NCBI GenBank assembly: GCA_034620365.1
Contig: JAQGEQ010000351.1
Location: 434,001-498,000, forward strand
Length of the DNA: 64,000 nt
Source: Pegea sp. RAD2-039
Taxonomy: Eukaryota; Chordata; Thaliacea; Salpida; Salpidae
Direction of reading: 5' to 3'
Shown here piece after piece: positions 15,962 through 62,439 of the stretch. How positions within the stretch are numbered: the first letter of the stretch is position 1; the number at the start of each line of letters is the position of its first letter. The notes under the pieces are model-generated. The model did no database searches. It was not told the DNA's origin and worked only from the letters and a program-made list of their open reading frames with translations. The position numbers and the translations under genes are program-made.

Positions 15962-18900
15962 ATGAAGCCTGAAGACAAGTAAGTTTAATTAAACAGAAGG
16001 TTTTATTATATTCATATTTGGTTTGTTTCTAGATACAACTTAGTTCACAAACAATTCTATTTTCTTGGCGTCGTGTCGTTGTTGCCATGGAACTTTTTCA
16101 CAACTGCTGATAGTGTGAGTTTTACAAAATTGTTTTAAATCTCTTCTCGTACATTAATATTGCAACGAATACTTAAAGTGAGCTTTTAACAAGTTTAAAA
16201 ATGTTGGTTCTACTTTTAGTATTGGAGTGAAAAGTTTAGACCGTTGAATGAAGACAACTACACAATATATTTAGTTAACATAACAACAGCAACAACAACC
16301 AGTTTACAAACCAGTTTGACACCAATTGAAACCAGCCTAAATTTACAAAGTTTATTTAGAAGTTGTGTATCAGTTTGCTCTATGCTGCCTCATGTGGTTT
16401 GCTCTTTTATAGTGTCTCTTACATATAAAACGTAAGTAACATATTTCTTCATTCATTTATTCGAAAGAAACACAATGTTTATTTATTTCGATTATTTTGA
16501 AACGGAACACTTATAGATGTATGGATGATTTATACAAATTATAACAGTTGAACAACAAAATATTAACTTTTTGATCCATAATAAACTTAATACTTGTATT
16601 CTTAGGGCTAACGATAGAAAAAGAATGATTGTTAACCTTTCTATAATGGCAGGGGTTTTTGTAATCACAACATCTTTTGTCAAAGTAAACAGAACTTTTA
16701 ATTTTGTTCATATTTTCTAATCTCAAATTAATGATAACTTCAAAATCTTTTTTATTTTTAAAGTAAAACTCTTAAAAATACGGAAATATTATTCAGTGGG
16801 AACATTTTTTTGTGTTTACAGATCAATACTGATACCTTTCAAACAACTTTTTTCATTTTGACATTGGTAACAACTTTTATAGTCAACTGTTCATCAGCAT
16901 TTGTTCAAGCAACCTTATTTGGGTTTACAGCAGGCTTTCCTCAAAGCTACACTGTGTCTTTGATGGCAGGCCAGGTTAGACAGTTCTAAGTTGTGATGGA
17001 AGATTTTCATGAAATATTTCTTGTAGGGGGTGGGTGGAGTATTTGCCGCATCTGCTATGATTGTCGCTATTTCAGGTAAATGAAATAAGGAAAGTTAGTG
17101 ATAAAAATTCAAACAAAAACTTCATATTTTTTCAGTTGCTTCTAAACCTTCAGACTATGCTTTGATATTTTTCATTATTGCTCTTGTTTTGTTGTTGTTA
17201 TCAATCGTATGCTTCTTGTTGTTGGAAAAAAATGTGAGTTAAATATTTTCAACAAACAAATAGTATAATTAAGTTTAAACTTCTTTTTAAAAATCTAATA
17301 AAAAAGCTAACACAGTAAAAACATAATTAAATTATATACATATGCAGAAGAAAAAAATTAGATATGAATTTTTACAACCTCTGATTGTGTTCATTTACAA
17401 GATAATAATTTTCAAGGATTTGAAGAAAAGTAATCTTAAATAATTTTAGAAAGTTGTGTTGTTCAAAACAAAATAGTAAAAAGTTTTTTCAAATTTTCAT
17501 ATATGTAGCATATATGAAGGTTGAAACTGTTAGGTAAAAATTATAATGTTTGAAAAAAGTAGGTCCTGCCGAGATTTGAACTCGGATTGCTGGATTCAAA
17601 GTCCAGAGTGATAACCGTTACACCACAGGACCGGTTAAAAGTTTTAAATTTACAATAATAAATATAACAATATATATTTGTAGATTTTTGATCAAGTTGT
17701 AAATTGAACACTTAAAAAATACTTAGAAATTTTGTTGTTATTTATTTTTGTTATTATCTACCACTTAAAATCAACGATACTTTTTTACAGAAATATTATC
17801 AGTATTACAGAAGTAAAAATATTCCAAGTAAGTACCTTAGTTATCGTTATGTAATTAACTTCGAATATTTTCAATAATACCAAATAAGTTTTACTCAAAA
17901 ACTAGAAAACAACTTTTCATAAATGTTTGGTTTTAATTTGATTTTTAACAGTTAAAGACGATAGCACTTCAACAAACAACTTTTTGTTGGAAGATACAAC
18001 AAAACAACTAATATCTAAACATGAGGTTTAGAAACTATTCTTCTAATCTTTCACTAAATTTTAAAATTTTACAAACTGATTAAAATAGGTAATAAGAATA
18101 AACAATTAGAAATAAACTAAAATTTCTTTAGTAATATATTCATAAATTTAAGATTTATATACTAAACAAGTTTATTTTTGCAGCCGAAATATTTTGACGT
18201 TTTAAAGAAAATACTAATTCATTTTATTAGCTGCTTCCTTTTATACTTTGTGACTCTAGCAAACTATCCAGCAGTGACTGCTTCCATCAAATCGATGAGC
18301 ACAGGAACTACTTGGACAGGTAATAAATTTGATTTTTGGTCATAGTAAAACTAATTTATGTATTTCTGTTAAAAAATGAACTCAAGATATGTTTAGAGTT
18401 TTATATGGTCTGATAACTAATGTATTTTTAAACAGATGTTTATTTTACCCCTGTTTTGTGCTTTCTTCTATTTAATGTGTCAGACTTGATTGGACGGCTT
18501 TTGACAACCTACATATCATGGGTTAGTTTATTGCTATTCAAAATCGATACGAAATAAATAATTCAAGTTATATGAGCAAACTGGATTTAAAACCATTTTT
18601 TATATAGCCTTCAAAGGAACAAAAATTTACTTTACTGGCTTTATCTTCCTCTCGTGTGGTGTTCTTTTTCTTATTTGCTTTCTGTAACTCTCAACCAAGA
18701 AGATTTACTGAAGTAATATTTACTAGTGATGTTTACTACATAATTTTCATGATTTTGTTTGGATTATCCAATGGATATCTTGGAACAATTATAATGGAAT
18801 ATGCTCCACAGTAAGAACAATTATCAACAAATATTTGCAAATTGTATATTATTAAATTTGTAGAATGATTGAAAATCAAGCTGGAAGACAGTTAGCTGGA

Positions 18901-25278: not shown

Positions 25279-26677
25279 ATTGGTTTGCATACCTTCACAA
25301 AAGTAATTGATAAAAAGTGAAAAACTCCAGCTTTTAAAGCTTTTTACTTCCTTGTGCTGCATGTTTTTTACTGAATATTAGTAATTGCATTTGTTTTGCT
25401 TCCTTCAAAGCTTTCACATCAGGAAACAAACAATGTACTGATACAAACAAGTATATGTGACAAGGAAGAACTTTAATAATATCAGCTGCTGATTAATTGA
25501 AAAGTTTTTTAGATAACAATTCATAATAACTTTTTCCATAACTCTCTAATAAAACGAAACATTGATAAAATCTTTAAGTATCGATCTTTTCTAGTTTAAT
25601 TTAAATAGCATATTTTAAATTGTTTAACAACATTTTTTACATTTGATGATTATAGCTTTTTAGAATAAATATAGCAATAAATCTATTTGGCAAACTTTTA
25701 GCTATGATTTAATGTTTGATTTGAGACTTAAAAGTTAACATCTTTATAAATAAACAAGTAGTTTTGATGAGTTTAAACATAAAGATTTACAACAAAAAAA
25801 CTTTTATTCATCTTTCTCTATTACCCTTGAAAAGTTTTAATAAAAATTGTTTTAGTTCTTAAGTTATTCTGATTAATATTTACAATTTTAGAGTCTATGT
25901 TAATAGAAATTTTTTTTATTTATATTGTTATAGATAATTACAAGAGACTATAGTAAAAACAATTATTTTACTAACATTCTTAAACTAGATATTTAGCATA
26001 TTCGTATTCTGAAAACTTTTAGTTAAGTATATTTTTATCTAATAAAATTATAAAGAGTTTTGTTGCTGTAAAAAGGACATAAATGATTTATAATTTGTTA
26101 TTTATCAAATTTGAAACTTTTACTTGAGTTAAGTAAGTATGAAACAAATCTACAGAGAAATTTTATACAATTTAGATAAAGTTTATTAAGAAATTTTAAA
26201 GATTAAACATCGAAAAACAACTAATTCTTATTATTCAAAACACATAAAAATTATTATTGAAATAAGTATACTTATTTATTCAATTGATTTTTGAAAATTG
26301 ATTTAGTTAATTTATCACAAATTTTTCTTTCCTTGTTGTAAGCTATTTTGTAGACTCAGATATTTAAATCGACATAAACATTTATTTTGATAATTTATTT
26401 TGAGATTTGTACTAACTAATGATTTATGTAAGATTTATATCAATTATAATTAAAAAACTGAACTTTTATCAAGTTGCTAATCAAAATCAAAAATTGGTAT
26501 TGTTATGTTCAAACATTTGTAGAAAGATGATGTCCATTTGCTGAATAATATAAAAGCTTTTAATTTCCTTCTACTTCATCCTTTTATCAATCTATCTGTA
26601 TTGACGCTGAATTCAAATCAGACTTCCAATGAAAGAAGTTATTAAGTCAATAAAAAGTTAATTTGTTTTAAGAATAT

Positions 26678-26683
26678 TTTATT
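26678..26683 (-). terminator. Polyadenylation signal, peptide gene A
   Basis: AATAAA on the minus strand about 127 nt beyond the stop codon. It is kept at 29148 and 31618 in the other copies, and in the related + strand locus near 41897. Confidence 0.6.
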
Positions 26684-26809
26684 TGTGCAAACTATTTTTC
26701 TGTTATAACAACATGAAAAAAGATCAATTTAAATGATAATAAGAAGATTTAAGAAAGAAAATTTTGTTAGTCAACATTTTCAAGTAGTCCAGAGATCGTT
26801 TCACTTCGA

Positions 26810-27542
26810 TTAGTTGGAAAGATCAGTGTCTAGATGAGGAAGAGCTTCATCAAAGTTAAAGTCTTTCTTCGATGCTAAAAGTCGAAATTTAAAGTCAAAT
26901 GTTTTATCATTATATTATTTTGAAAATATATTAGATATTACTTTTAATATAAATTAGAAGCTTCTAAAATTACATTAAAACCAAAAATTCGAAATAATCT
27001 TGATTCTATTTTATAATAATTCTTTAAAAAGTCAATTTATCGACAATTTGTTCAAACCTGAGTTTGTAGCTTCAACATAACGAGCCATATCAGTAACTAA
27101 CATACGAGCATCTGTTTCTCCAACTTGATCACTTAAATCATTCAACAATGACACCAATGTCTTTTCATATTGATCGTGATCATATCCCTGTAAATGAATT
27201 ATGATGTTTGAAAAATGTTCAAACTACTTTCAATCTACCTGTTCATCTCCAAGGTAGGCAACAGCAGTATGAAGAGCTGCATGCTTGACTCCTTTCCATG
27301 CATGACGGACACTACAAAAAATTTCATGTTAATTAAATTAGATAAAATCATATAGAGATTTAAGCAAAGCAGTTTTCTGCAAGTTTTAATTTATAAGATA
27401 ATTGAATTGATTAGTTAGAAATCTGATGAAGGTTTGGTAGCTAATATAAAAGTCATATCACTTACAAACGGCGAAACCAATCAGCCTCTGAAGAACCAAC
27501 AAGGCATACAGCAATCAATACGAAAAGTATTTTGGCGTTCAT
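26810..27542 (-). CDS. Secreted cationic antimicrobial-peptide-like precursor, copy A (styelin-like layout)
   Basis: Four minus-strand exons: 27466-27542, 27239-27311, 27058-27187 and 26810-26874; 114 residues, all phases closing. Residues 1-20 (MNAKILFVLIAVCLVGSSEA) are a signal peptide. Next is a basic, His-rich amphipathic segment, DWFRRFVRHAWKGVKHAA then LHTAVAYLG (residues 21-47). An acidic tail of about 65 residues follows, with DEQGYDHDQYEKT and ending HLDTDLSN. Signal, N-terminal cationic helix beginning with W-F, a Leu-Gly-Asp boundary and an acidic pro-tail is the layout of ascidian styelin precursors; low-complexity resemblance cannot prove homology. There are no cysteines in the mature part. 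The exon 3 donor can be read through to a stop at 27032, but the spliced exon 4 keeps frame. The ATG lies 21 bp after a TTCTCAACAG acceptor. Inferred role: secreted host-defence peptide. Confidence 0.75.
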
Positions 27543-27674
27543 CTTGAGATTTTGAGTTTTTAACTGTTGAGAAATAATATGTTGGTTAGTTGCAGAGTGT
27601 TATGTTTTATGTAACAGATTTGAAGTTTTCTATACATTAATACAATGAATCAGAAAACTATGAGAATTGAACCA

Positions 27675-27753
27675 TTTATAACAGATATATTAAAGATATA
27701 ATAAAAGGATTTTAGATAATCAAAAGGAAGGTAAATCACAAAGTAATCATTGG
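27675..27753 (-). promoter_or_regulatory. Putative promoter of peptide gene A (CCAAT plus TATA)
   Basis: On the minus strand, CCAAT (27753-27749, beside an octamer-like ATGCAAA) is followed 69 bp later by TATAAA (27680-27675), about 135 bp before the ATG. A CAACAG acceptor in between implies a 5'-UTR intron or leader splice. The same sites recur in the other copies. Motif evidence only. Confidence 0.4.
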
Positions 27754-30220
27754 TTTGCATACCTTCACAAAAGTAATTGATAAAAAGTGAAAAACTCCAG
27801 CTTTTAAAGCTTTTTACTTCCTTGTGCTGCATGTTCTTTACTGAATATTAGTAATTGCATTTGTTTTGCTTCCTTCAAAGCTTTCACATCAGGAATCAAA
27901 CAATGTACTGATACAAACAAGTATATGTGACAAGAAAGAACTTTAATAATTTCAGCTGCTGATTAATTGAAAAGTTTTTTAGATAACAATTCATAATAAC
28001 TTTTTCAATAACTCTCTAATAAAACGAAACATTGATAAAATCTTTAAGTATCGATTTTTTCTAGTTTAATTTAAATAGCATATTTTAAATTGTTTAACAA
28101 CATTTTTTACATTTGACGATTATAGCTTTTTAGATTAAATATAGCAGTAAATCTATTTGGCAAACTTTTAGCTATGATTTAATGTTTGATTTGAGACTTA
28201 AAAGTTAACATCTTTATAAATAAACAAGTAGTTTTGATGAGTTTAAACATAAAGATTTACAACAAAAAAACTTTTATTCATCTTTCTCTTTTATCCTTAA
28301 AAAGTTTTAATAAAAATTGTTTTAGTTCTTAAGTTATTCTGATTAATATTTACAATTTTAGAGTCTATGTTAATAGAAATTTTTTTTATTTATATTGTTA
28401 TAGATAATTACAAAAGACTATAGTAAATACAATTATTTTACTAACATTCTTAAACTAGATATTTAGCATATTTTTATTCTGAAAACTTTTAGTTAAGTAT
28501 ATTTTTATCTAACAAAATAATAAAGAATTTTGTTGCTGTAAAAAGGACATAAATGATTTATAATTTGTTATTTATCAAATTTGAAACTTTTACTTGAGTT
28601 AAGTAAGTATGAAACAAATCTACAGATAAATTTTATACAATTTAGATAAAGTTTATTAAGAAATTTTAAAGGTTAAACATCGAAAAACAACTAATTCTTA
28701 TTATTCAAAACACATAAAAATTATTATTGAAATAAGTATACTTATTTATTCAATTGATTTTTGAAAATTAATTTAGTTAATTTATCACAAATTTTTCTTT
28801 CCTTGTTGTAAGCTATTTTGTAGGCTCAGATATTTAAATCGACATAAACATTTATTTTGATAATTTATTTTGAGATTTGTACTAACTAATGATTTATGTA
28901 AGATTTATATCAATTATAATTAAAAAACTGAACTTTTATCAAGTTGCTAATCAAAATCAAAAATTGGTATTGTTATGTTCAAACATTTGTAGAAAGATGA
29001 TATCCATTTGCTGAATAATATAAAAGCTTTTAATTTCCTTCTACTTCATCCTTTTATCAATCTATCTGTATTGACGCTGAATTCAAATCAGACTTCCAAT
29101 GAAAGAAGTTATTAAGTCAATAAAAAGTTAATTTGTTTTAAGAATATTTTATTTGTGCAAATTATTTTTCTATTATAACAACATGAAAAAAGCTCAATTT
29201 AAATGATGATAAGAAGATTTAAGAAAGAAAATTTTGTTAGTCAACATTTTCAAGTCGTCCAGAGATCGTTTCACTTCGATTAGTTGGAAAGATCAGTGTC
29301 TAGATGAGGAAGAGCTTCATCAAAGTTAAAGTCTTTCTTCGATGCTAAAAGTCGAAATTTAAAGTCAAATGTTTCATCATTATATTATTTTGTAAATATA
29401 TTAGATATTACTTTTAATATAAATTAGAAGCTTCTAAAATTACATTAAAACCAAAAATTCGAAATAATCTTGATTCTATTTTATAATAATTCTTTAAAAA
29501 GTCAATTTATCGACAATTTGTTCAAACCTGAGTTTGTAGCTTCAACATAACGAGCCATATCAGTAACTAACATACGAGCATCTGCTTCTCCAACTTGATC
29601 ACTTAAATCATTCAACAATGACACCAATGTCTTTTCATATTGATCGTGATCATATCCCTGTAAATGAATTATGATGTTTGAAAAATGTTCAAACTACTTT
29701 CAATCTACCTGTTCATCTCCAAGGTAGGCAACAGCAGTATGAAGAGCTGCATGCTTGACTCCTTTCCATGCATGACGGACACTACAAAAAATTTCATGTT
29801 AATTAAATTAGATAAAATCATATCGAGATTTAAGCAAAGCAGTTTTCTGCAAGTTTTAATTTATAAGATAATTGAATTGATTAGTTAGAAATCTGATGAA
29901 GGTTTGGTAGCTAATATAAAAGTCATATCACTTACAAACGGCGAAACCAATCAGCCTCTGAAGAACCAACAAGGCATACAGCAATCAATACGAAAAGTAT
30001 TTTGGCGTTCATCTTGAGATTTTGAGTTTTTAACTGTTGAGAAATAATATGTTGGTTAGTTGCAGAGTGTTATGTTTTATGTAACAGATTTGAAGTTTTC
30101 TATACATTAATACAATGAATCAGAAAACTATGAGAATTGAACCATTTATAACAGATATATTAAAGATATAATAAAAGGATTTTAGATAATCAAAAGGAAG
30201 GTAAATCACAAAGTAATCAT
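27751..30220. repeat. Tandem unit 2 (2,470 bp), with peptide gene B
   Basis: Full-length copy, no net length change from its neighbours and only scattered substitutions. Its left end shares several single-base variants with unit 3 but not with unit 1 or the partial fourth unit. Confidence 0.95.
29280..30012 (-). CDS. Antimicrobial-peptide-like precursor, copy B
   Basis: Same four-exon structure as copy A shifted by 2,470 bp: 29936-30012, 29709-29781, 29528-29657 and 29280-29344; 114 residues. The signal peptide and cationic mature segment are identical to copy A. In the acidic tail GETDAR is GEADAR (Thr to Ala). Splice sites, polyadenylation signal and upstream CCAAT/TATA are preserved, so the copy looks functional. 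Confidence 0.75.
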
Positions 30221-30223
30221 TGG
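30145..30223 (-). promoter_or_regulatory. Putative promoter of peptide gene B
   Basis: CCAAT (30223-30219) and TATAAA (30150-30145) at the same spacing as in copy A. Confidence 0.4.
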
Positions 30224-32690
30224 TTTGCATACCTTCACAAAAGTAATTGATAAAAAGTGAAAAACTCCAGCTTTTAAAGCTTTTTACTTCCTTGTGCTGC
30301 ATGTTCTTTACTGAATATTAGTAATTGCATTTGTTTTGCTTCCTTCAAAGCTTTCACATCAGGAATCAAACAATGTACTGATACAAACAAGTATATGTGA
30401 CAAGAAAGAACTTTAATAATTTCAGCTGCTGATTAATTGAAAAGTTTTTTAGATAACAATTCATAATAACTTTTTCAATAACTCTCTAATAAAACGAAAC
30501 ATTGATAAAATCTTTAAGTATCGATCTTTTCTAGTTTAATTTAAATAGCATATTTTAAACTGTTTAACAACATTTTTTACATTTGATGATTATAGCTTTT
30601 TAGAATAAATATAGCAATAAATCTATTTGGCAAACTTTTAGCTATGATTTAATGTTTGATTTGAGACTTAAAAGTTAACATCTTTATAAATAAACAAGTA
30701 GTTTTGATGAGTTTAAACATAAAGATTTACAACAAAAAAACTTTTATTCATCTTTCTCTTTTATCCTTAAAAAGTTTTAATAAAAATTGTTTTAGTTCTT
30801 AAGTTATTCTGATTAATATTTACAATTTTAGAGTCTATGTTAATAGAAATTTTTTTTATTTATATTGTTATAGATAATTACAAGAGACTATAGTAAAAAC
30901 AATTATTTTACTAACATTCTTAAACTAGATATTTAGCATATTTTTATTCTGAAAACTTTTAGTTAAGTATATTTTTATCTAACAAAATAATAAAGAATTT
31001 TGTTGCTGTAAAAAGGACATAAATGATTTATAATTTGTTATTTATCAAATTTGAAACTTTTACTTGAGTTAAGTAAGTATGAAACAAATCTACAGATAAA
31101 TTTTATACAATTTAGATAAAGTTTATTAAGAGATTTTAAAAGTTAAACATCGAAAAACAACTAATTCTTATTATTCAAAACACATGAAAATTATTATTGA
31201 AATAAGTATACTTATTTATTCAATTGATTTTTGAAAATTAATTTAGTTAATTTATCACAAATTTTTCTTTCCTTGTTGTAAGCTATTTTGTAGGCTCAGA
31301 TATTTAAATCGACATAAACATTTATTTTGATAATTTATTTTGAGATTTGTACTAACTAATGATTTATGTAAGATTTATATCAATTATAATTAAAAAACTG
31401 AACTTTTATCAAGTTGATAATCAAAATCAAAAATTGGTATTGTTATGTTCAAACATTTGTAGAAAGATGATATCCATTTGCTGATTAATATAAAAGCTTT
31501 TAATTTCCTTCTACTTCATCCTTTTATCAATCTATCTGTATTGACGCTGAATTCAAATCAGACTTCCAATGAAAGAAGTTATTAAGTCAATAAAAAGTTA
31601 ATTTGTTTTAAGAATATTTTATTTGTGCAAATTATTTTTCTGTTATAACAACATGAAAAAAGCTCAATTTAAATGATGATAAGAAGATTTAAGAAAGAAA
31701 AGTTTGTTAGTCAACATTTTCAAGTCGTCTAGAGATCGTTTCACTTCGATTAGTTGGAAAGATCAGTGTCTAGATGAGGAAGAGCTTCATCAAAGTTAAA
31801 GTCGTTCTTCGATGCTAAAAGTCGAAATTTAAATTCAAATGTTTTATCATTATATTATTTTGAAAATATATTAGATATTACTTTTAATATAAATTAGAAG
31901 CTTCTAAAATTACATTAAAACCAAAAATTCGAAATAATCTTGATTTTATTTTATAATAATTCTTTAAAAAGTCAATTTATCGACAATTTGTTCAAACCTG
32001 AGTTTGTAGCTTCAACATAACGAGCCATATCAGTAACTAACATACGAGCATCTGCTTCTCCAACTTGATCACTTAAATCATTCAACAATGACACCAATGT
32101 CTTTTCATATTGATCGTGATCATATCCCTGTAAATAAATTTTGATGTTTGAAAAATCTTCAGACTACTTTCAATCTACCTGTTCATCTCCAAGGTAGGCA
32201 ACAGCAGTATGAAGAGCTGCATGCTTGACTCCTTTCCATGCATGACGGACACTACAAAAAATTTCATGTTAATTAAATTAGATAAAATCATATCGAGATT
32301 TAAGCAAAGCAGTTTTCTGTAAGTTTTAATTTATAAGATAATTGAATTGATTAGTTAGAAATCTGATGAAGGTTTGGTAGCTATTATAAAAGTCATATCA
32401 CTTACAAACGGCGAAACCAATCAGCCTCTGAAGAACCAACAAGGCATACAGCAATCAATACGAAAAGTATTTTGGCGTTCATCTTGAGATTTTGAGTTTT
32501 TAACTGTTGAGAAATAATATGTTGGTTAGTTGCAGAGTGTTATGTTTTATGTAACAGATTTGAAGTTTTCTATACATTAATACAATGAATCAGAAAACTA
32601 TGAGAATTGAACCATTTATAACAGATATATTAAAGATATAATAAAAGGATTTTACATAATTAAAAGGAAGGTAAATCACAAAGTAATCAT
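30221..32690. repeat. Tandem unit 3 (2,470 bp), with peptide gene C
   Basis: Third full unit; slightly more diverged than units 1 and 2 are from each other in the peptide gene, but again exactly 2,470 bp. Confidence 0.95.
31750..32482 (-). CDS. Antimicrobial-peptide-like precursor, copy C
   Basis: Exons 32406-32482, 32179-32251, 31998-32127 and 31750-31814; 114 residues. Signal and cationic segment are identical to copies A and B. The acidic tail has GEADAR as in B, and SKND in place of SKKD at the start of exon 4, a Lys to Asn change. All splice sites are intact. Being most distal in the array, it draws its upstream sequence from the partial fourth unit. Confidence 0.75.
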
Positions 32691-32693
32691 TGG
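32615..32693 (-). promoter_or_regulatory. Putative promoter of peptide gene C
   Basis: CCAAT (32693-32689) and TATAAA (32620-32615) kept at the same spacing; the octamer-like element beside CCAAT has one change here (ATGCATA). Confidence 0.4.
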
Positions 32694-32979
32694 TATGCAT
32701 ACCTTCACAAAAGTAATTGATTAAAAGTGAAAAACTCCAGCTTTTAAAGCTTTTTACTTCCTTGTGCTGCATGTTCTTTACTGAATATTAGTAATTGCAT
32801 TTGTTTTGCTTCCTTCAAAGCTTTCACATCAGGAAACAAACAATGTACTGATACAAACAAGTATATGTGACAAGGAAGAACTTTAATAATATCAGCTGCT
32901 GATTAATTGAAAAGTTTTTTAGATAACAATTCATAATAACTTTTTCAATAACTCTCTAATAAAACGAAACATTGATAAA
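32691..32979. repeat. Partial fourth tandem unit (about 289 bp)
   Basis: Matches the first 289 bp of the unit, then diverges abruptly after ACATTGATAAA. At variant sites (GGAAACAAAC, CAAGGAAGAAC, AATATCAGCTG) it agrees with unit 1, not with units 2 and 3. Confidence 0.9.
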
Positions 32980-34467
32980 CTATTTAAATATTGACTTTAT
33001 CTGGTTTGATTCAAATAATAAAAGCTAGCTTATTTTAGTTTGAAACAGCTTCCATTGCTTATTTCATCATAAGACTTAATTTGCTTCGAAAAGTTTGAAA
33101 AAATAGTTTTTTGATTAAAGTAAATTTATGAAAACTGACTTTTAATTTTTAATTTCAATAATTTAAACTCTTTATAAAAAGCTTACTTAGACAGTTTCTA
33201 AGAACTAATCATTTGTTATTATAATTAATCATTTAATGATATAATCTGGCTTGATTAAATAGTTACTTTAGGAAAAAATCATGATCAATAATTTCCTGAA
33301 AATAATTTCAACAAGCAATAAATATTCTGTTAATTGATAATCAATTTTTGATAATCAATAAATTATATCTAAGAAACTGTTTTAATTTGTAATTAGTTTA
33401 TTGAATTTGTATTGTTAGCGATTCTTGCAAATTGATGGTGATAAGACCATTTAACAAATCGTTTTAAGTTTAAAACTAAAAATTTGAAATATTCATTGAG
33501 GACTTTGTAGTTTGAAACGATGAGATAATTTAAACATTTAATTAGTGATTTATTTGTCATAAGCTGATATCAATTTTGTTTAAATAAATATTTTCTTAAT
33601 AATGTTTAACTTAATTATCAGAAAACATTTGAACCTGTGAAACCGAAGTTATGAAATTTCGCTGTTTACCTCCCAGTTTAATTTCAAGTTTATTTGAATC
33701 TTTATTATTGTTAAAAGCATTTTAATTTTCCTAAATCGCTTTTGAACATTTTTATTTTAAGGCAATATATATTTACTATTTATCAGACAATTTGTTTTAT
33801 ACTAATCAATTTGAAATTTACAAGAAGTTTATCTGCAACAAATCTTACAGAGCGTATAAGAATGATCTTGTAACTGAATATCTAACACCTAGAAGCTCTT
33901 AGACGTAACTCTCAACAACTGCTAAAAAAGTAAACTTTCAAAGATTTTGATTGAAGATAAAACTTAATTATATCTTCTATTTTATATTCATTGTAATGAT
34001 CAAACTGATCCGCTTCCTTCAAAAGTTTGAAGACTTAAGTGTACCAGGACTACATGGCACTTGATATTTTTAAGGATTCAACTTTAAATTATTATCAAAT
34101 TCTACATTTCTAAGTGTAACAAATCTGTGGACCACTGAGACTAAAAGGCAACCTTTGATAGTTGGAAACCTTAGGTCTAGTCCTATATGTAGCTTAATAA
34201 ATAATCTTCATAAAAATTGGATTTTAATCTAAAAGTTTCCTTCCAACTTGATTGTCGTAAAATTCAACATTTTCCACTAAATTTTCTCATATTTGAAAAA
34301 TAAAACTTAAAAATGAACAAATTGAAATGGTTTGAGGTTTAATACAAACAATTAAACGAAATGATTTTACAGAATTGAAAATGTCATGATGATAGAAAAT
34401 GAAGATGACATGAAGATCCGCAAAAAGGCGAAATACGGAGTAAGAAAAACGTTGAAATATTAGCTGA
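32980..34467. other. Intergenic region between peptide array and GRTP1
   Basis: AT-rich; no coding region supported. The right end (about 34380-34467) is the 3' UTR side of the GRTP1-like gene. Confidence 0.5.
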
Positions 34468-36046: not shown

Positions 36047-39000
36047 CTAGCTAGACAAAGATACATGTTTATGAAACGAATACCAACTACTAAAAGTTGC
36101 TTCATCTTTCAAATCTGGCTTCATCCAGCTGCATAAACCTTCAAACACCTTTTCGTCTTCAACTTTCTCTCGCTTCTTATAAATAAACGAAATTAACATT
36201 TCTCTCATTGCTTGCTGTCTTTTCTCAACATTCTGTTGACCACTTTCGTATTTTAAATCGTTAACCAACTCATTCATCAACTTTCTGATCTCATTACACT
36301 CATCAATATCTTCTCTCATAATTTTACGGTCAAAAAAAAGTTTAATATCACGTTGAAATAACATCGAATCCGGCTGGTCTTTGAACGTACCCAAACCACA
36401 TAAAGCACCACGGTAGGCTTTTTGATCACTACTTAATGTCAGTTGTACTTTTGGAGCAAAAAGTAGAGATACAAGCGAAGGAAGAGCTGGTAAAGCGGGT
36501 AGAACGGTTGTTTCCAGGCAGTTGAAACTAGTATCTGTTAGTCTAATATCACTAGCAACCATCAACACTTGGTTTGAATTTGTAAAGTCGGTACAAAGGT
36601 AATGTGAGTTGATTGAACATTTCATTATGTTGACATTTCGGTGAAAACTGGGTTTGGTCATCATTGGAACAAATGGTGTTTCTAATGTAGATGAAAAACA
36701 ACTAGCTGTAATTGAACGTGGATAAGTGAAATACAATTGGCGGTCCACATTTTTTGTCCACATACTGCTTGGTTCGCTTTGGTGAATAAAGTTAAAGTTT
36801 TCGTGACTTTGTTTTGAATATTCACCTTCTTCAACAAACTCACACATATCTTGCTCAATCAAAATTGTATTCAAGCATCTTTGATCTTCTGTAAACAACT
36901 CTACGCGATAGACACCAAAGACATAGCTAAAGATCTTTACTTTTACAGTCTCCAATCTACCTACTTGTTGAATAACAAATCGTTTAGAAATGTTACGATT
37001 CCCAACAGGATGAACTTTACACAGCTGAAACTTAATTGCTTGGTATGGAATCACCTTCAACTCATCAGAAAGAGAAACCAACATATCAAGGCTTGGAAGA
37101 GAGACTGTTTTGCCTATATCTACAAGAAACACCGAAGCAATTGGTTCAACTTCAAGTACTATTGCTCTGTAATATTGATCTTTATCATAAGGTGCCAGAT
37201 ACAAACGAGATGATGGATTAAACTTAGAAGCAACTTTCAGTTGTTTTTTTATCAATTGTTCGATTTTCATTTGAAGTTTCAAACTTTGTGGATTAGCTGC
37301 TACCCCCCAAAATGTTGTACAGGACTCAATAAACGTGATGCGAATGGGAATCAAATCATATGAATCGAGAATATTTGGTTTCAGTTTGTCAATGCTCACT
37401 TGATCATACAATAAACCAGAGCTTGGACTTCTATCCATTAAAGAGGAGGTTAAATCAATACGTTGGTTGTTACTTAGAGCATGATACACTGCTGGTAGCG
37501 TCGAGTCATGATTACAAAGCTGTTTGAATTCAATTATAGCCTTGCTACTATCATAATAAATTCTTTCAACTTCACCATACAATGAAGCAGCTTCTATTAA
37601 AGATTTTTTATATAAATGACTTTCATTAAATGGTAGAGATCTCAACATTACAGTTTTGAATGGATCTAACCCATTATTTGCATTATAAACATCTTTTTCA
37701 AAAATCTTTTGCTGTAGAAAGTAATTAGGGTAGAAAGTAGCAGCAATTGCTATCTTGAGTACAAGCGATGAGTCTTCATCTTCACCAACATTCGTGAAAG
37801 TACAAATGTTAACAGCATTCAATTTCTGTTTAATATCATTTATTTGTAATTCCACTTCTTTTAGTCGGTTTAAATTAACAAAATTCTTTTTACACCAACG
37901 CTGAATATCTTGATGTGGTATCTTTCCTCGTTTATGATCTATCCATTTGATCTTCCAAATTTTATAAACGTTTAAAGCCATGATACAATCAGATAATGAT
38001 CCTTTAGACCATTTGATCATATTTTTAGCAGCATCATGGTTTTTACTAAGTACAGAAACGAAAAAACCTTTTGTCATAATAGTAGCTGCGATTATTATAC
38101 AATCTTCAATACAGCCAAAAACATAACCCATCATTATTAATTTGCCCAAATAAATATCTAATTTCAGACAACATAAAATCTCTCCAAATACAGTTAAATG
38201 TCCATCTAGCTGCTTCTTGTCGCTTGAAAGAGCTCCAACTTCCTTTAGTAACATAACGGATTTAGCAATATGTGTTATGTGTGGTGGGGACAGAGCTTGA
38301 CTTAGCAACCTTCGCGGTGAGCCAACATTAAATTGTTTTAAATGAAGAATTGAATTAGCTAAACAACAAAATTGCATTTCTGGTTTAGAACACTCACTCA
38401 TAGTATTTTTCCAAAAACTTTTTGGTACTAAATGAAAAGATAAACCATCAGCTACACGCCCTGCTCTGCCTAATCTTTGTAATGAGTTAGATCTTGATGA
38501 CCAACACAATTCCAAAGATTCAAAAGTGCTGTCGTAATTCATAACTTTACGTTTCATCAAACAGAAATCAATCACATATTTAACATCAGGTACAGTTATA
38601 GAACTTTCAGCTATATTCGTTGATAGAATTACTTTTCTTATATTCACATTGGGTGGCTGAAATACTTCAAGCTTTTTTTCAAACTGGGTTAGTGAATGAA
38701 GTCGTATGATTTTCAGATGTTTTATATTTAGAACTGTTATATGTTCAGCCATTCTATTTATTTCAGAAATTCCAGGAAGAAAAACAAGAATTGTTTTCTT
38801 TTGATAAGATATAGTATCATCCTTACCATTCAAATATTCTATTAAATTAGCAGCAAGCTTATATCTTGAAATACCTATAATTGGATTATCTATTGAGAAG
38901 TTATTAATTTCACCAAATACTTTAAGATCTTCATAGAAATTTTGCTGTACATTAAACATTTTTTCTTGAACTATAATTAATGATGGTATAGAACCAATTT

Positions 39001-39802
39001 CACTAAAATATTTCAAAAAATGTGAACAATTAAGAGTGGCCGACATTAGAATAACCTTCACATTTGGTGAGTTAGTTCCAAGAAGTTTTTTGATTAACAT
39101 AAGAAGCAGATCAATATGAATACTACGTTCATGAACTTCATCTAATATAATATGTGAAAACTGATTCAGATTTTTCTTTGATATTATTATATTCAACAAC
39201 AATTCTACTGTCACATACCTTACTCTAGTTTCTCCTGAGATTCGTTTATCCAATCCAACTTGATAACCAACAACACTCCCAATTGGACATTTCAATTCTT
39301 CTGAAACTCTGTTAGCAACAGTGACTGTAGCAACCCTTGTAGGCTGAGTTACAATTATATTACAACTTTTATGATTTTTGGCATATTGCTGTAATATATA
39401 CTTAGGTACTTGAGTTGATTTACCACAGCCAGTTGTACCTTGTATTATTGTAACCTTATTTGTTGCTATCTCAGACAAAATAAAATCTTTATACTTAAAT
39501 ATTGGCAAATCATTACCACAAGTTGACATGTAATCACAATGTTGATAAGCTCCTGTGTCATAAGTTTTTATTTTCTTATCACCACAAGGAACCTCAACTT
39601 CATTATCAGATAACTCATCCTCAATTGCTTCCTTTATTTTAGGACTACCTTGAAGACTTCCTTCTATATCTGATTTGTTTTTATCTACTGTTCTCTCCCG
39701 TTGTAAAATCACTGTTGGTCTTACCTCTTTGCCCATACAGAACCAATCTAAACACTGATCTGTGGTTAATGAAGCAATCATTTTTGGCTGATGATTAGTC
39801 AT
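36047..39802 (-). CDS. TDRD9: TDRD9-type DEAH helicase with Tudor domain (piRNA pathway)
   Basis: One uninterrupted frame of 1,251 residues (human TDRD9 about 1,380, spread over many exons). TDRD9/Spindle-E works with PIWI proteins in germ-cell granules to silence transposons. The N-terminus LTTDQCLDWFCMGKEV matches the family start. Helicase motifs: Walker A GTTGCGKST (122-130), TQPTRVAT (motif Ia), DEVHERS (221-227), SAT (254-256), ILSTNIAESSIT (motif V) and LQRLGRAGR (motif VI). A helicase-associated region follows. A Tudor domain lies at about residues 860-920 (LYLAPYDKDQYYRAIVLEV, VFLVDIGK), the site that binds methyl-arginine. A zinc-binding type end (CSWMKPDLKDEATFSSW) is less certain. 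Complete absence of introns in a 3.8-kb frame is odd beside its nine-exon neighbour. The start follows a TTTTTATAG acceptor by about 34 bp. Confidence 0.95.
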   Translation of the reverse strand: MTNHQPKMIASLTTDQCLDWFCMGKEVRPTVILQRERTVDKNKSDIEGSLQGSPKIKEAIEDELSDNEVEVPCGDKKIKTYDTGAYQHCDYMSTCGNDLPIFKYKDFILSEIATNKVTIIQGTTGCGKSTQVPKYILQQYAKNHKSCNIIVTQPTRVATVTVANRVSEELKCPIGSVVGYQVGLDKRISGETRVRYVTVELLLNIIISKKNLNQFSHIILDEVHERSIHIDLLLMLIKKLLGTNSPNVKVILMSATLNCSHFLKYFSEIGSIPSLIIVQEKMFNVQQNFYEDLKVFGEINNFSIDNPIIGISRYKLAANLIEYLNGKDDTISYQKKTILVFLPGISEINRMAEHITVLNIKHLKIIRLHSLTQFEKKLEVFQPPNVNIRKVILSTNIAESSITVPDVKYVIDFCLMKRKVMNYDSTFESLELCWSSRSNSLQRLGRAGRVADGLSFHLVPKSFWKNTMSECSKPEMQFCCLANSILHLKQFNVGSPRRLLSQALSPPHITHIAKSVMLLKEVGALSSDKKQLDGHLTVFGEILCCLKLDIYLGKLIMMGYVFGCIEDCIIIAATIMTKGFFVSVLSKNHDAAKNMIKWSKGSLSDCIMALNVYKIWKIKWIDHKRGKIPHQDIQRWCKKNFVNLNRLKEVELQINDIKQKLNAVNICTFTNVGEDEDSSLVLKIAIAATFYPNYFLQQKIFEKDVYNANNGLDPFKTVMLRSLPFNESHLYKKSLIEAASLYGEVERIYYDSSKAIIEFKQLCNHDSTLPAVYHALSNNQRIDLTSSLMDRSPSSGLLYDQVSIDKLKPNILDSYDLIPIRITFIESCTTFWGVAANPQSLKLQMKIEQLIKKQLKVASKFNPSSRLYLAPYDKDQYYRAIVLEVEPIASVFLVDIGKTVSLPSLDMLVSLSDELKVIPYQAIKFQLCKVHPVGNRNISKRFVIQQVGRLETVKVKIFSYVFGVYRVELFTEDQRCLNTILIEQDMCEFVEEGEYSKQSHENFNFIHQSEPSSMWTKNVDRQLYFTYPRSITASCFSSTLETPFVPMMTKPSFHRNVNIMKCSINSHYLCTDFTNSNQVLMVASDIRLTDTSFNCLETTVLPALPALPSLVSLLFAPKVQLTLSSDQKAYRGALCGLGTFKDQPDSMLFQRDIKLFFDRKIMREDIDECNEIRKLMNELVNDLKYESGQQNVEKRQQAMREMLISFIYKKREKVEDEKVFEGLCSWMKPDLKDEATFSSWYSFHKHVSLSS

Positions 39803-40859
39803 ACTTTCAATAAAAAAATTGATACTAACTAATATCTATAAAAATATATCAAAAAATAACTTAATAAATTTTCTACAAAATATTATTTGAACATAAACAA
39901 TATAAAATTGAAAAAAAAACTGAATATAAAGAATATTAAAAATGTAATCAAATAAACACCAAGTCATTAAATACAGCTACACAAAATTTCATAGTTTAAA
40001 ATCTATTACATATTTTTGCATAATACTAAATCTTCAAGTAACTTTTTTTTTAAACAATTTGTATTAATAGTATCCTAAGCGAACGATTATGAAAACTTTT
40101 AGAAATATCAACAAATATTTAAAGTAAAAACTTTAAAAAAAATAAAACAAAATTTATTTGAAAGATATAATGTAAATAAATACCAAAACAGAATTGTAAA
40201 GCTACTTATGAAATGTAAACCAAAATACATCTATAAATAATTAATGAAAAACATTAAAATTTGTTGAAGTAAATAAAATATGATTTGTTTAAAATACTTT
40301 TTAAATATTGTGAAAATATATATTCTAACTTTTAACAATATAAAACTTGTTGGTAAATGCTTGTAATAAAACAAACATAAGTTACCAATAACAACAAAAA
40401 TATTTAACAAGTATAAAAATCAAATCACATCTAAACTGTGTAAATATTAAAAAAGTAAATTTAAGCTAAATCAACAAAGTATTTAACAAAGGCCATCAGA
40501 CAATTAACCAAATTAAAATAAAAAATATTGAAGATTTCTACAAACATAAATTAATTCTCTTATTTTTAAATAAAAGATAATATCTAAAATATTTAAACCA
40601 AAATAGAAATTTAAAAAAAGTAGTAACACGAATATCACATGAGAACAAATTCACTCTCATTCACAAACTCAATGAACACTAACTTGGAATTTTTTATTGG
40701 TTATCGAGCTCATTTCTAGTTAGATATAAAAACGCCATAAAAGTAAACATGACTGAAAAGGTTTTAATAAAAAAACGGCTTGTAACTTATTATAAATGAT
40801 TTAAATTATATATTCCAACACAATGACCTCGAATAAAAGCTCCTTTAATCGATATATCT
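39803..40859. other. AT-rich intergenic region upstream of TDRD9
   Basis: About 1 kb of A-rich sequence without a supported gene. The left end should hold the TDRD9 promoter. Confidence 0.5.
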
Positions 40860-41465
40860 GCCATATCAAGTTGGTGATATCAGAAAAATCGAATCTGTTC
40901 AGGCAACATTTACGAGATTGGTTTGCAGGAAACTTAATATCAAATACGAGAGTTATAAGCATCGTCTCAGCTTCTTCAATCTAGATACTACTTTGGAAAT
41001 CCGAAGAATTAAATACGACCTTATTCTGATTTTTAAAATTATTCACAACCTAATTGATCTTCAGTTTGATGACTTTTTCTCCATTAGTCCCTCCCTCAAG
41101 TTATATCAACTTAGAAGACATAAATTACATCTTAATAAGCCCACTCCACCAGCTACGTTAACCAGATTAAGTTTTTTCTCATACCGCACAATCAGTACAT
41201 GGAACCATCTGCCATCAGAGATTGTCATGTCAAAATCACTTATGCTGTTCAAGAAAAAGCTGAATTGTTATAATATCGCCAACATTGCCATTTCTAAACT
41301 GTGAATTTTTCTCTTTTACAATACTATGATTCTGTGCAATTCTTCATTGTCATATACTTTTTCGTTTACACGTCAAATAGATCTAATTTGTGAGAATGTG
41401 TGTTAGCGAGAGGTGCTCTTTTTAGGCACCCTCCTTCACATTTATTGTAATAAATAAATAGATAT
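40860..41465 (+). mobile_element. CR1/Jockey-like LINE, 3' end (copy A)
   Basis: 5'-truncated non-LTR element on the + strand. It encodes the last about 140 residues of a reverse transcriptase protein: IRKIESVQATFTRLV, LEIRRIKYDLILIFKIIHN, then FFSYRTISTWNHLPSEIV and a stop at about 41304. A 160-bp 3' UTR containing GAGAGGTGCTCTTTTTAGGCACCCTCCTTCA ends in a TAATAAATAAATA tail. The 3' UTR and protein tail match the copies at 50.06 kb and 59.13 kb. The intact tail frame suggests a young insertion. It abuts the decayed peptide-gene relative that follows. Confidence 0.9.
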
Positions 41466-49223: not shown

Positions 49224-52200
49224 ATGATTTGTAAATCGGTTAAGTTATTCTATTATTTCATAATTTTCTTTTCAGCTTATGCAAATGTAGCTTCGATTAA
49301 TGTTGATTTCAGTAAGTAAACAAACTTGAAATTTTTTAAAATATTAAATGATAAATAGCCAAAACTTTTATATATTTGTTTTAGATAAGCATAAATTCTA
49401 CACATACACAATTATAAAAAGAAATTAAATTGCACATTTACATCTATATAGAAATAAAATTTAGATTTAACTACTAGTTTAAAAAAACAAGCATTTGTGT
49501 TATACAACAAATATATGTTTTAAAAATGTTATAAATATAACAAATTTTGATTTGATGCAAAATTGCAGTTATAAAAATTTATAGAATTTAAAAATTATTA
49601 TCAGATGTTAGCTGTTCTGAAAGTGCGGAGTTTCTTTCTGCTGACTCTCGTAATAGTTGGGTAGTCAAATGCCCTATTTGTGATAGACGTTCCTTCGTAT
49701 TTGGAGGAATGTACATTCATAGAACAATAAATGGAAATATAATACAACTGCTTTACCAGCAAAGTACTTCTATATGCTTTTCAGGCATTCATGCTGGGAT
49801 TATAGTAAGAATTTAGATTCTACAAATAAGTAACATCTTTATAATAAAACTAATTTTATATTTAAATCTTTAGAATAAAACAGGAGGATACATTCGGATC
49901 GAAAAAATTTATTCTCCTTCAAAATTTACGGTTTTACCTGATCAAATCATAAGAAATGGATTACTTGCTATTCCGGTTCATATAGAAAATTATGGCTACC
50001 AATTGTATCAAGGTAACAAATAGTTCTTTTCAAAATATTGAAAGCTAGTATTCATTTATTTATTTATTACAATAAATGCAAAGGAGGGTACCTGAAAAGA
50101 GCACCTCTCGCTAACACACATTCTCACAAATAACATCTATTTAGTCAAAAATATAGAAAGCAAAAGATGTAATACATGGCATTTCGATATCACTCAAAGC
50201 ATATAACAGTGAACAATTACATAGAATGTTAATAGTATAAAAAAGAGAAAAATTATAGTTTAGAAATGATAATGTTGGCAATGTTATAACGATTCAACTT
50301 CTGCTTGAACAATGCGAGTGATTCTGACATGAAAATGTCTGATGGCAACTGGTTCCATGTACTAATTTTGCGGTATGAGAAAATCATTGCTCTGATTAAC
50401 GTACCAGGTGATATGAGCTTATTAAGATCTAATGGGTGTAGTCTGCTTTTATATAACTTGAGGGAAGGACTAATGGAAAATAAATCATCAAACTGAATGT
50501 CAATTAAATTGTGGATAATTTTAAAAATACGAATTAAGTCGTATTTAACTTGTCGAATTTCCAAAGTATCTAAATTGAAGAAGCTGAGACGATGTTTATA
50601 ACTATCATATTTAGTATTAAGTTTCCTGCATACTAATCTCGTAAATTAGGCCTGAATAGACTCGATTTTTTTGATATCACCAACTTGATATGGAATCTAT
50701 GCACTAACATTGTATTCAAGAATTGGACATACGTACAATTTGAAAATATTGATAAAAAAGCATGGGTCCTTAGAATTAAAGGTCTTTGTAATAAGAAAGA
50801 CAAAGTTGATTGATTTTCCAAGATTTTGGAAACATAATTGCGCTATTTAAAGTCAGATGATAGAACAATGTCAAGGTCTAGGACCAAAGATACTCGTTGA
50901 ATAATAAATCCATTGATGGAGTATTGGTTCAAGGAATTTACCGCTGGATTACGAGAAAGAGTTATAAGTTCAGACTTTGTGGGCTGGATTCTGACTTGCC
51001 AATTCGTAGACCAGTTTTCTACAGCGTGTAGTGCAGTTTGAAGTTTTGAAGGATTACAAGATAATAGCTTGATATCATCTGCATACACAAACTCACTGAC
51101 ATCATCTACTGCTACTAGTCTTCTGATGAGGTCTTCAATGAAAATTAAAAAGAGAAGGGGACACAGAACAGAACCCTGAGAAACACCACTAGTGATTTGA
51201 CTAGAAGTAGATACAGATCTTTCTACACGAGTCTCTTGGGTTCTACCTGATAAGTAATCTTCAATCCACTGTAAGATAAAGCTGTTGATTTTTAAGTTTT
51301 TCAATACAGTAACGAGCTTAGTGTGCGGGACAGAATCAAACGCTTTAGCAAAATCGAGATATATGTTGTCACGAGGAGTATTACTTTCATAATGGTCTGT
51401 AAGCTCATTAAGAAAAGTGAGATGTTGAGTCAGGGAAGATCTCCGTTTCACAAAGCCATGCTGGACATCAGATATTAGATGGTGCTCCACCAAATGACTT
51501 GTCATATGATTGTGAATGATATGCTCTTAAGTTCTGCAGATAACTGAAGTCAGCGAAACTGGTCTGTAGTTAAGTGCGGTGTTTCTTGGACCCTTAATTT
51601 GTTAAGCTGTAACCTTTTAAATGTGCATCGGGAGCCTTGATTAGTTCTGGCTTAACTTCAATGAAAATTTTTTTAAGTCAGCTTGATTAATTTAGTATCA
51701 AACACAAAGCCAAGAAACGATTACCAAACAGACAGCATTTGGCTTTAAAAAGTCTCTTAAAGTTGCACAAATGAATTTAGTGTAGCATCTGTTTTGATAT
51801 CTTGATAAATATTAAAAGTTGATAAATATTATAAAAATTGAATAAAATAAATCTTATGAAATGGTATTTAAAAAATATTTTTAAATGAAAAATTTAAATT
51901 AAATTTGTTGTTTTTATAGTTGATCACGAAATTACGACTGATGATGACTCATCAGTTAGTTACATTGTTGAATCGATAAGTCAACCAGACGAAAAAGCAA
52001 ATCAACCAAAAGTTACAACTAAACAAGCTAGAAAATCAACTAGTCAACACAAAGATGTTGTCAATCCACATGAATCAAATACTATTTTACAAGAAACAAC
52101 CAGCAGTCTACTTTATAAAATGACCAACCAACAGAAAGAGACAAACAAACAGTCAATCAAAATAACAAGTAAACCAACAAACAAGTTACTAACAGAAGAT

Positions 52201-59128: not shown

Positions 59129-59856
59129 TTATTTATTTATTTATTGCAATAAACGCGAAGGAGGGTGTTTAAAGAGAGCACCTCTCGCTATCACATATTC
59201 TCACAAATAATATCTATTATATATAATCAAGTTGGAAATATAGAAAGCAAAAGATCTAACACATGGCATTACGATAGCCCTCAAAGCATTTAACAGTAAA
59301 TAATTTGTTAAATATATATAGAATGTTAAAAATAGAAAAAACGAAAAAAAAAAACAAAGTTTAAAAATGGCAATTTTGGCAATATTATAACGATTCAACT
59401 TCTGCTTGAACAATGCGAGTGATTCTGACATGAAAATGTCTGATGGAAGCTGGTTCCATATACTAATTGTACGGTATGAGAAAAAATGTGCTCTGATCAA
59501 CGTACCAGGTGATATGGGCTTATTAAGATGTAATGTGTGTCGTCTGAGCTGATATAACTTGAGGGAAGGACTAATGGAAAATAAATCATCAAACTGAAGT
59601 CAATTAAATTGTGGAAAATTTTAGTATTAAGAATTAAGTCGTATTTAACTCGTCGAATTTCCAAAGTATCTAAATTGAAGAATCTGAGACGATGTTTATA
59701 ACTATCGTATTTAATATTAAGTTTCCTGCATACTAATCTCGTAAATGTGGCCTGAACAGACTCGATTTTTTTGATATCACTAGCTTGATATGGAATCCAT
59801 GCACTAACATTGTATTCAAGAATTGGACGTACAACAATTTGAAAAGATTGATAAAA
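59129..59856 (-). mobile_element. CR1/Jockey-like LINE, 3' end (copy C)
   Basis: Minus-strand 5'-truncated copy. Its 3' tail is at 59129 (complement of AATAAATAAATAAATA), and the 3' UTR with GAGAGGTGCTCTC is shared with copies A and B. The protein tail includes FFSYRTISIWNQLPSDIFMS. Small deletions break the frame between about 59595 and 59640, so it is decayed more than copy A. It separates the two coiled-coil paralogues. Confidence 0.88.
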
Positions 59857-60337
59857 AAGTATTTTAAAACACTGATTACTAAAAGTTCAGTAATGTTTCA
59901 TATTAGAAATCGGTTATCTTAATATGTTGACTTCAGAAGATGAAAATAAATATTTTGTGTAATTTTTCGCAAATTAGAAATAAGTTCTTCTTGCTTATTT
60001 TCTTTTATGACAGAGTTTACAAAATCTATTCTGTAGTTATCTCAATTTGTTCCTCAGTTTTTATTTTTGAGTGTAAAAAACTATCTTTATTAATAGTTAT
60101 CCAGAATCTCTTAAACAAACTGAAATTAAATATTAATCTAATTTTTCACGATAAAGTAAAATTCATTTGTTGTACACTCAGCAAACGACCTAAAGGTGCT
60201 AGTTGTCCAATTTTCATCAGCCAATTTGGACCTTGGAATAAAAATTCAGCTTAAAAACGATAAACGTTATTAGGTAAGGTGTTAACGTTCCCCAGCCAAG
60301 CAATGTCCATCGAATGAAAGACGGACAGATCCCAAAA
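59857..60337. other. Intergenic region before paralogue 2 block
   Basis: An open frame at 59940-60254 lacks any known feature and is probably chance. Homology to the 55.87-kb region starts at about 60338 (AAACGTAGCAC, TTTCTTTCAACTGTTT). Confidence 0.4.
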
Positions 60338-62095: not shown

Positions 62096-62179
62096 AACGT
62101 TTAGTTAACCGTATAAAATTTTTTCATTAATAAAATCTCTCATAAATGTTCTTTTTTGAAAGTTTTTTATTTATCTCTA

Positions 62180-62439
<260 letters not shown>

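What the first reader, a model, noticed from the sequence alone, without database searches (positions are those of the whole stretch)
25279..32979. Three-gene tandem array of styelin-like cationic peptide precursors
Each unit carries a four-exon minus-strand gene for a 114-residue secreted precursor. It has a 20-residue signal, a His/Arg/Lys-rich amphipathic stretch starting DWFRRFVRHAWKG and ending AYLG, then a long acidic tail. The exon structure was found by phase matching and exon 4 would be missed by simple ORF calling. The order signal, W-F-led cationic helix, L-G-D boundary and acidic tail is that of ascidian styelins (established for Styela); homology to them is inference. A His-rich mature peptide suggests pH-dependent activity. 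The mature segment is identical in all three copies while the acidic tail carries two amino-acid changes.
Basis: partly seen in the sequence, partly recalled or inferred. Interest (0 to 1): 0.85.

Follow-up and report, generated by a model that had tools for sequence, protein, structure and literature searches.

The report
Tunicate defence-peptide precursors with hypervariable core
Three near-identical sea-squirt-type genes encode secreted precursors of a cationic peptide that probably kills microbes, and they belong to a much larger gene family in which the short peptide core can change fast while the parts around it stay almost fixed.

Summary
Three minus-strand four-exon genes (77/73/130/65 nt, 114 aa) sit in 2,470-bp tandem units; the proposed mature segment is identical in all three, and the tail has two amino-acid changes. 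The genome is a tunicate's: a cellulose-synthase ORF lies just before a GH6 exon. The precursor has a signal-like start, a 27-residue cationic segment (+4, 3 His; 0 of 2,000 shuffles as amphipathic) ending LG|D, and a -11/-12 tail. Pfam's Styelin model does not match, but a 12-residue botryllin propeptide epitope fits the tail (10 of 20,000 shuffles as good).

The core is +4 to +7 in all 17 modelled group A/B genes, -2 to +3 in the 21 others. A sister array is 98% identical over the unit, yet its core differs by 15 amino-acid-changing and 0 silent substitutions plus a 12-nt deletion; the C189 genes show no such excess. Best reading: styelin-like antimicrobial precursors. Expression and activity are untested.

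The parts
25279..32988 (-). tandem array: three 2,470-bp units plus a 300-bp partial fourth copy
   Evidence: the repeat finder, copies at 25279/27749/30219/32689, spacing 2470
32406..32482 (-). gene 1 exon 1: signal peptide and first residues of mature peptide (DWFRR)
32179..32251 (-). gene 1 exon 2: rest of mature peptide (to AYLG) and DEQ of the tail
31998..32127 (-). gene 1 exon 3: conserved tail, predicted as two helices
   Evidence: AlphaFold H4-22, H24-42, mean pLDDT 92.1
31750..31814 (-). gene 1 exon 4: acidic C-terminus and stop
29936..30012 (-). gene 2 exon 1
29709..29781 (-). gene 2 exon 2
29528..29657 (-). gene 2 exon 3
29280..29344 (-). gene 2 exon 4
27466..27542 (-). gene 3 exon 1
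27239..27311 (-). gene 3 exon 2
27058..27187 (-). gene 3 exon 3
26810..26874 (-). gene 3 exon 4
32504..32507 (-). splice-acceptor-like ACAG 21 nt before the ATG of gene 1 (5'-UTR intron or spliced-leader site); same ending at 30034 and 27564
   Evidence: reading as acceptor is inference
31618..31623 (-). AATAAA poly(A) signal of gene 1; same at 29148-29153 and 26678-26683
25279..25578 (-). upstream-region copy with no gene after it (end of array)

Best explanation
Each gene makes a secreted antimicrobial-peptide precursor of a tunicate. Signal peptidase cuts after SEA, leaving a 27-residue cationic amphipathic segment joined through LG|D to a 67-residue acidic tail with two predicted helices. 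The tail keeps the peptide neutralised and probably helps it fold or be sorted to blood-cell granules. A protease cuts before the D, as reported for styelins, and the freed peptide (perhaps amidated at the terminal glycine, perhaps stronger at acid pH through its histidines) disrupts microbial membranes. Tandem arrays raise dose, conversion spreads whole exon 1-3 blocks, and selection has rewritten the core in at least one sister array. Shown by sequence: exons, order, charges, conservation, core divergence. Predicted: tail helices. Inferred: processing, storage, killing, pH effect.
For: Exon plan and protein. Window core +4, hydrophobic moment 0.51, 0 of 2,000 shuffles as high; tail -11/-12. 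Group B: +7 core ending VVLG|D, tail -16 to -18. Tunicate marker: cellulose synthase ORF then GH6. Botryllin propeptide epitope KEHDRDEYDGAL (PMC9966394 Table 4) fits the family tail profile: 10 of 20,000 shuffles score as high with all groups pooled (5 to 133 of 20,000 with the five narrower profiles tried); its two other epitopes score negative. Ciona antimicrobial precursors have the same order of parts, and styelins are cut before D (PMC7387483, passages). Core-only divergence, gene 2 vs gene 533475: 15/76 nt in the core vs 30/1593 elsewhere, P 2e-10; 15 nonsynonymous, 0 synonymous, P 0.029; pooled over three comparisons (two share a gene) 26:0, P 0.0017. 51 substitutions in 2,458 aligned sites against the 531017 unit; 0 of 20,000 permutations have so dense a cluster.
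Against: No Pfam Styelin match. No expression, processing or activity data. The 21 modelled group C, D and E proteins share the tail but have cores of -2 to +3 and tails of +1 to +5, so the tail is not simply a counter-charge to a cationic peptide. Amphipathicity is clear for the window peptide, weaker for C189 cores (shuffle fraction 0.004-0.013), marginal for the 528-536k cores (0.05-0.09) and not significant for group B (0.24-0.31). Window vs the two C189 genes compared shows no excess of amino-acid change in the core (6-7 N, 2 S; pN 0.10-0.11, pS 0.11), and group-B cores are nearly fixed (0.4%). In group-D pairs the excess is not significant (P 0.17). No NF-kB-like site in 700 bp upstream of the seven genes scanned.
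Confidence: 0.7

Rival explanations
1. The conserved tail is the working part, a secreted helical module shared by all groups, and the segment before it (cationic in A and B, short and Asn/Ser-rich in most of C and D) is a fast-changing address or recognition tag, not a freed antibiotic.
For: Each tail HMM puts all modelled relatives (12 A, 5 B, 1 E; or 21 C/D/E) above all 5,000 shuffled decoys. Group-D signal resembles group A's (10 of 20 identical, 1 of 20,000 shuffles as good). In nine of the ten group-D genes on C6 the segment differs by 33.7% against 1.8% in the tail, 1.6% signal and 7.1% introns. Confident two-helix model of the window tail. Tails of the 21 modelled C/D/E proteins are net positive, +1 to +5.
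Against: In A and B the segment is strongly cationic and ends in a conserved G|D; the tail there is strongly acidic with an extra acidic exon 4. The C loci were first seen as weak tail hits (A query, E 0.07-0.27), so the decoy test is biased in their favour; the one group-C signal tested is no more like group A's than shuffles (4 of 20; 4,966 of 20,000).
Confidence: 0.15
2. The core was swapped between arrays by a short gene-conversion tract from a divergent paralogue, with no positive selection.
For: Block-like conversion is seen in this family: the two genes at C83:102-104k match window gene 2 at 90-100% per 30-nt bin from ATG to the end of exon 3, against 53-60% further upstream, 80-86% in the 30 nt before the ATG and 40-70% after exon 3.
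Against: A whole-genome DNA search with the 528k-array exon 2 finds only the four copies of that array; all 15 differences change amino acids and none is silent; unit length differs by exactly the 12-nt core deletion. The assembly is one genome, and a lost donor would not be seen.
Confidence: 0.12
3. The peptides are not antimicrobial but signalling or egg/sperm peptides made in quantity.
For: Secreted, tandem, fast-evolving peptides also occur in such systems (general knowledge, no call).
Against: Cationic core, LG|D boundary, botryllin-like propeptide stretch and tunicate precedent.
Confidence: 0.08

Closest known systems
Botryllin (Botryllus schlosseri, PMC9966394)
   Same: Signal, cationic mature peptide that begins with G-W and a longer propeptide behind it; a 12-residue propeptide epitope fits the tail motif D-x-D-x-Y-x-x-x-L
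Styelins (Styela clava, Pfam PF17562)
   Same: Cut before D (PMC7387483 passages); order of parts and tryptophan near the start (recalled)
   Different: No Pfam match at E up to 10 for the four A/B precursors scanned; core sequences were not aligned here
Clavanins and clavaspirin (Styela clava)
   Same: His-containing amphipathic peptides from blood cells or pharynx; pH-dependent activity reported (PMC5198042, PMC8719109, passages)
   Different: 23 residues, Phe-rich; sequences were read in a passage, no similarity test was run
Ciona Ci-MAM / Ci-PAP and other linear cationic helical peptides (PMC7387483)
   Same: Signal, cationic amphipathic helix, anionic helix in that order; acidic residue at the boundary; two listed helices carry W-V-R-T near the start, one beginning D-W-V-R (passages)
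   Different: The anionic helices seen in the passage are about 25-35 residues and show no D-x-D-x-Y motif by eye; no alignment was run

Membership tests
Styelin (Pfam PF17562) | match to the curated profile | tested here: not met
   hmmscan of 4 A/B precursors, E up to 10: no Styelin; genome search none, though a split exon could hide it there
Styelin-like tunicate precursor | signal, cationic peptide, acidic tail in that order | tested here: met
   (signal judged by eye, no SignalP)
Styelin-like tunicate precursor | boundary before an Asp | tested here: met
   G|D in 12 of 12 group A and 5 of 5 modelled group B proteins; actual cleavage not testable
Styelin-like tunicate precursor | propeptide sequence shared with botryllin | tested here: inconclusive
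   12-residue epitope only; 10 of 20,000 shuffles as good with all groups, 117 of 20,000 with A and B alone
Tunicate gene | genome carries cellulose synthase with a GH6 domain | tested here: met
   that the fusion is tunicate-specific is recalled, and the join of the exons was not modelled
Antimicrobial peptide | kills microbes | not testable with these tools
   no assay
Haemocyte peptide | expressed in blood cells | not testable with these tools
   no transcript data

The most novel reading that the evidence does not exclude
The window genes are one branch of a large tunicate superfamily of secreted cassettes: a near-fixed signal exon, a conserved two-helix tail, and between them a segment that evolution rewrites, sometimes into a cationic antibiotic (groups A, B), sometimes into a short Asn- and Ser-rich, often Cys-led tag (C, D, E). 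The tail would act as a common carrier for diverse secreted effectors, a tunicate counterpart in logic to cone-snail or frog-skin peptide families.
Probability: 0.4. Interest if true: 0.72.

Novelty: new variant of a known kind. Interest (0 to 1): 0.5.

Why it matters
It may tie styelin-type peptides to a definable tail module and a gene family of at least 42 loci in one compact tunicate genome. It gives a natural experiment, two sister arrays about 62 kb apart that are alike except in the peptide core, to test whether host-defence peptides are driven by selection on the core alone. If other tunicates hold the same tail, a tail profile would find antimicrobial genes that core-based searches miss.

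Tried and rejected
Pattern search with an unsplit codon pattern gave nothing, because the stretch is split across exons 1 and 2. PDB sequence search: only chance-level hits for the precursor (best E 0.074) and the tail profile (best E 0.073), none for a group-D protein. Foldseek of the tail: best E 3.3. Pfam: SEO_C at 18.4 bits on the window precursor is below its cut-off of 26; Spectrin_5 and Zn_ribbon on group B, and SurA_N_3, DUF659 (18.2 of 34.7), Conotoxin and others on group C/D/E are all below cut-off; DUF659 also comes up weakly for 7 of 26 tails (best E 0.0018). COX1 search, meant to read the mitochondrial code: no match at E up to 0.001. Naming the species by assembly size or genome papers failed (listings only); rotifer, louse and midge were considered from base composition and genome size and dropped once CesA/GH6 was found. 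A paper search for stretches of the window peptide and 'styelin precursor' found 0 papers; a five-term search for hypervariable tunicate peptides found 1 paper, on a coral lectin; styelin/tandem/paralog with two of three terms required returned 18,437 papers, 15 listed, one of them (insect cecropins) naming styelin. Those three searches of an open-licence library are the only basis for saying that I found no report of this family. One search stopped with an error after nine group C/D rows; the full 21 were computed. My first splice scan required phases 2, 0; the control over all nine phase pairs gives (2,0) as best in all 21 loci with any solution, (1,0) also possible in 5, no solution in 3 loci.
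Full report
Observation. Units of 2,470 bp repeat three times from 25279, with a 300-bp partial fourth copy to 32988. Each unit holds a minus-strand gene of four exons (77, 73, 130, 65 nt; phases 2, 0, 1) for a 114-residue protein. AATAAA starts 127 nt past each stop, and an acceptor-like ACAG ends 21 nt before each ATG. Acceptor-like sites near the ATG are also visible in most of the group B, C and D genes printed, so a 5'-UTR intron or spliced-leader trans-splicing is likely (inference).

Organism. The window lies in G000:C83:434001-498000 of a 105.7-Mb, 387-contig assembly. A GH6 exon at C14:74494-74718 scores 27.5 bits over a 27-bit cut-off (35 bits), and upstream of it an ORF matches Pfam glycosyltransferase and cellulose-synthase models and holds QRSRW. 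A cellulose synthase fused to a GH6 domain is, from general knowledge, a tunicate hallmark. The species was not identified.

Family. A protein search of the own genome found more copies. Group A has 12 genes: three in the window, two head to head at C83:102-104k, four at C83:528-536k and three on C189. Group B has 6 loci on C6 and C44, 5 of them modelled: exon 1 is again 77 nt, exon 3 again 130 nt, phases 2, 0, 1, with core DWSSAFIRRLFKGRRRTKPSIHHFMRVVLG (one copy M for I). Searches with a group C and a group D protein and a splice-aware scan added 9 group-C loci (6 modelled), 14 group-D and 1 group-E: 42 loci, 38 with full models. Two further partial group-D-like matches (C6:4263859 and C6:3508963) are not counted. 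The search tool scores only the best candidates, so 42 is a lower bound. The 21 modelled C to E genes have three exons. My scan required phases 2, 0; a control over all nine phase pairs gives 2, 0 as the best in all 21 and nothing in three loci. Cores of these 21 range from -2 to +3 and their tails from +1 to +5.

Tail. Profiles of C/D tails rank all 12 A, 5 B and 1 E above all 5,000 shuffled decoys (B and E only narrowly: E 0.004-0.03 against 0.29), and A/B profiles rank all 21 C/D/E above all decoys. Because C was first seen as a weak hit (E 0.07-0.27), this test leans in favour. Independent support: the free choice of splice phases, and the group-D signal, 10 of 20 residues identical to group A's (1 of 20,000 shuffles as good); the one group-C signal tested gives none (4 of 20; 4,966 of 20,000). 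AlphaFold on the window tail with 26 aligned tails gives two helices, residues 4-22 and 24-42, mean pLDDT 92.1, pTM 0.62. No Pfam or PDB match is convincing.

Charge and shape. The window core has +4 and three His, maximum 18-residue moment 0.51 (0 of 2,000 shuffles as high); its tail is -11 to -12. Group B has +7 against -16 to -18. The 528-536k cores have +4 with moments of 0.38-0.39 and shuffle fractions of 0.05-0.09; group B 0.24-0.31; C189 cores 0.004-0.013. So amphipathicity is clear for the window peptide and C189 relatives and weak for the others.

Link to known peptides. Botryllin's antibody table gives KEHDRDEYDGAL as propeptide beyond the mature end (PMC9966394: outline, passages, methods 4.7, Discussion and figure/table sections read). 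It fits the family tail profile in the register D-x-D-x-Y-x-x-x-L: 10 of 20,000 shuffles as good with all groups, 117 with A and B, 5 with C and D; the two other epitopes score negative. Ciona precursors have the same order of parts, and styelins and clavanins are cut before D and DD (PMC7387483, passages). Pfam Styelin does not match. So it works like a styelin precursor by plan, may share its tail, and is not filed as a styelin.

Core evolution. Against gene 533475, about 70 kb away on the same contig, window gene 2 differs by 1.5% upstream, 3.3% in the signal, 2.0-3.2% in introns, 1.5% in the tail and 1.3% downstream, but by 15 of 76 nt plus a 12-nt deletion in the core; all 15 change amino acids. 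Core against the rest: P 2e-10; N against S in this pair: P 0.029; pooled over three comparisons, two of which share a gene, 26:0, P 0.0017. Four of the 15 changes lie after the deletion and depend on gap placement (read from the alignment). Whole-unit alignment to gene 531017: 51 substitutions in 2,458 sites, and the only gap is the 12 nt; no permutation of 20,000 gives so dense a cluster. A DNA search with that array's exon 2 finds only its own four copies, so no donor is visible. Results against: window gene 2 with the two C189 genes compared gives 6-7 N and 2 S in the core, pN about equal to pS; the five B cores are nearly fixed (0.4%, introns 6.2%). In nine of ten group-D genes on C6 the segment differs by 33.7% on average, signal 1.6%, tail 1.8%, introns 7.1%, downstream 11.3%, upstream 29.8%, but the N:S excess in six disjoint pairs (12 of 14 genes) is not significant (P 0.17). 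The C83:102-104k genes carry the window core unchanged inside a block that matches from about the ATG to the end of exon 3 and stops there, which looks like conversion. Thus the core is fixed among some copies and rewritten in others.

Mechanism. Secretion, masking by the acidic tail, cutting before D, membrane attack, with acid-boosted charge through His. Only the sequence features are shown; each functional step is inferred from botryllin, styelins and clavanins (papers above).

Noticed in passing
36047-39835 (-): Single 1,262-aa ORF with DEAD/DEAH helicase, Helicase_C and Tudor domains; resembles TDRD9/spindle-E (name recalled).
   Followed up: partly
40849-41304 (+), 50253-51526 (-), 59201-59886 (-): Related ORF fragments that look like LINE reverse transcriptase pieces (by eye; no search done).
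   Followed up: no
51898-52272 and 52661-52996 (+): Two similar ORFs near each other sharing HEITTDD.SSVSYI.ESISQPDEKANQPKVTT, a local duplication of unknown kind.
   Followed up: no
62146-62586: Long simple repeat read as poly-Leu on one strand and poly-Ile on the other.
   Followed up: no
17561-17632 (-): tRNA-Gln (anticodon ttg), found by ARAGORN and Rfam.
   Followed up: no
L021 (C83:98500-108000): Two head-to-head group-A genes whose exon 1-3 block matches the window gene while flanks, intron 3 and exon 4 do not: a likely conversion block with sharp edges.
   Followed up: partly
L032, L033, L036-L055 (C6, C10, C59, C78): Large set of short secreted genes (groups C, D, E) with a conserved tail behind a variable, Asn/Ser-rich, often Cys-led segment; three C loci gave no gene model and may be broken.
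   Followed up: partly
G000 assembly: No COX1 match at E up to 0.001: the mitochondrial genome may be absent from the assembly.
   Followed up: no
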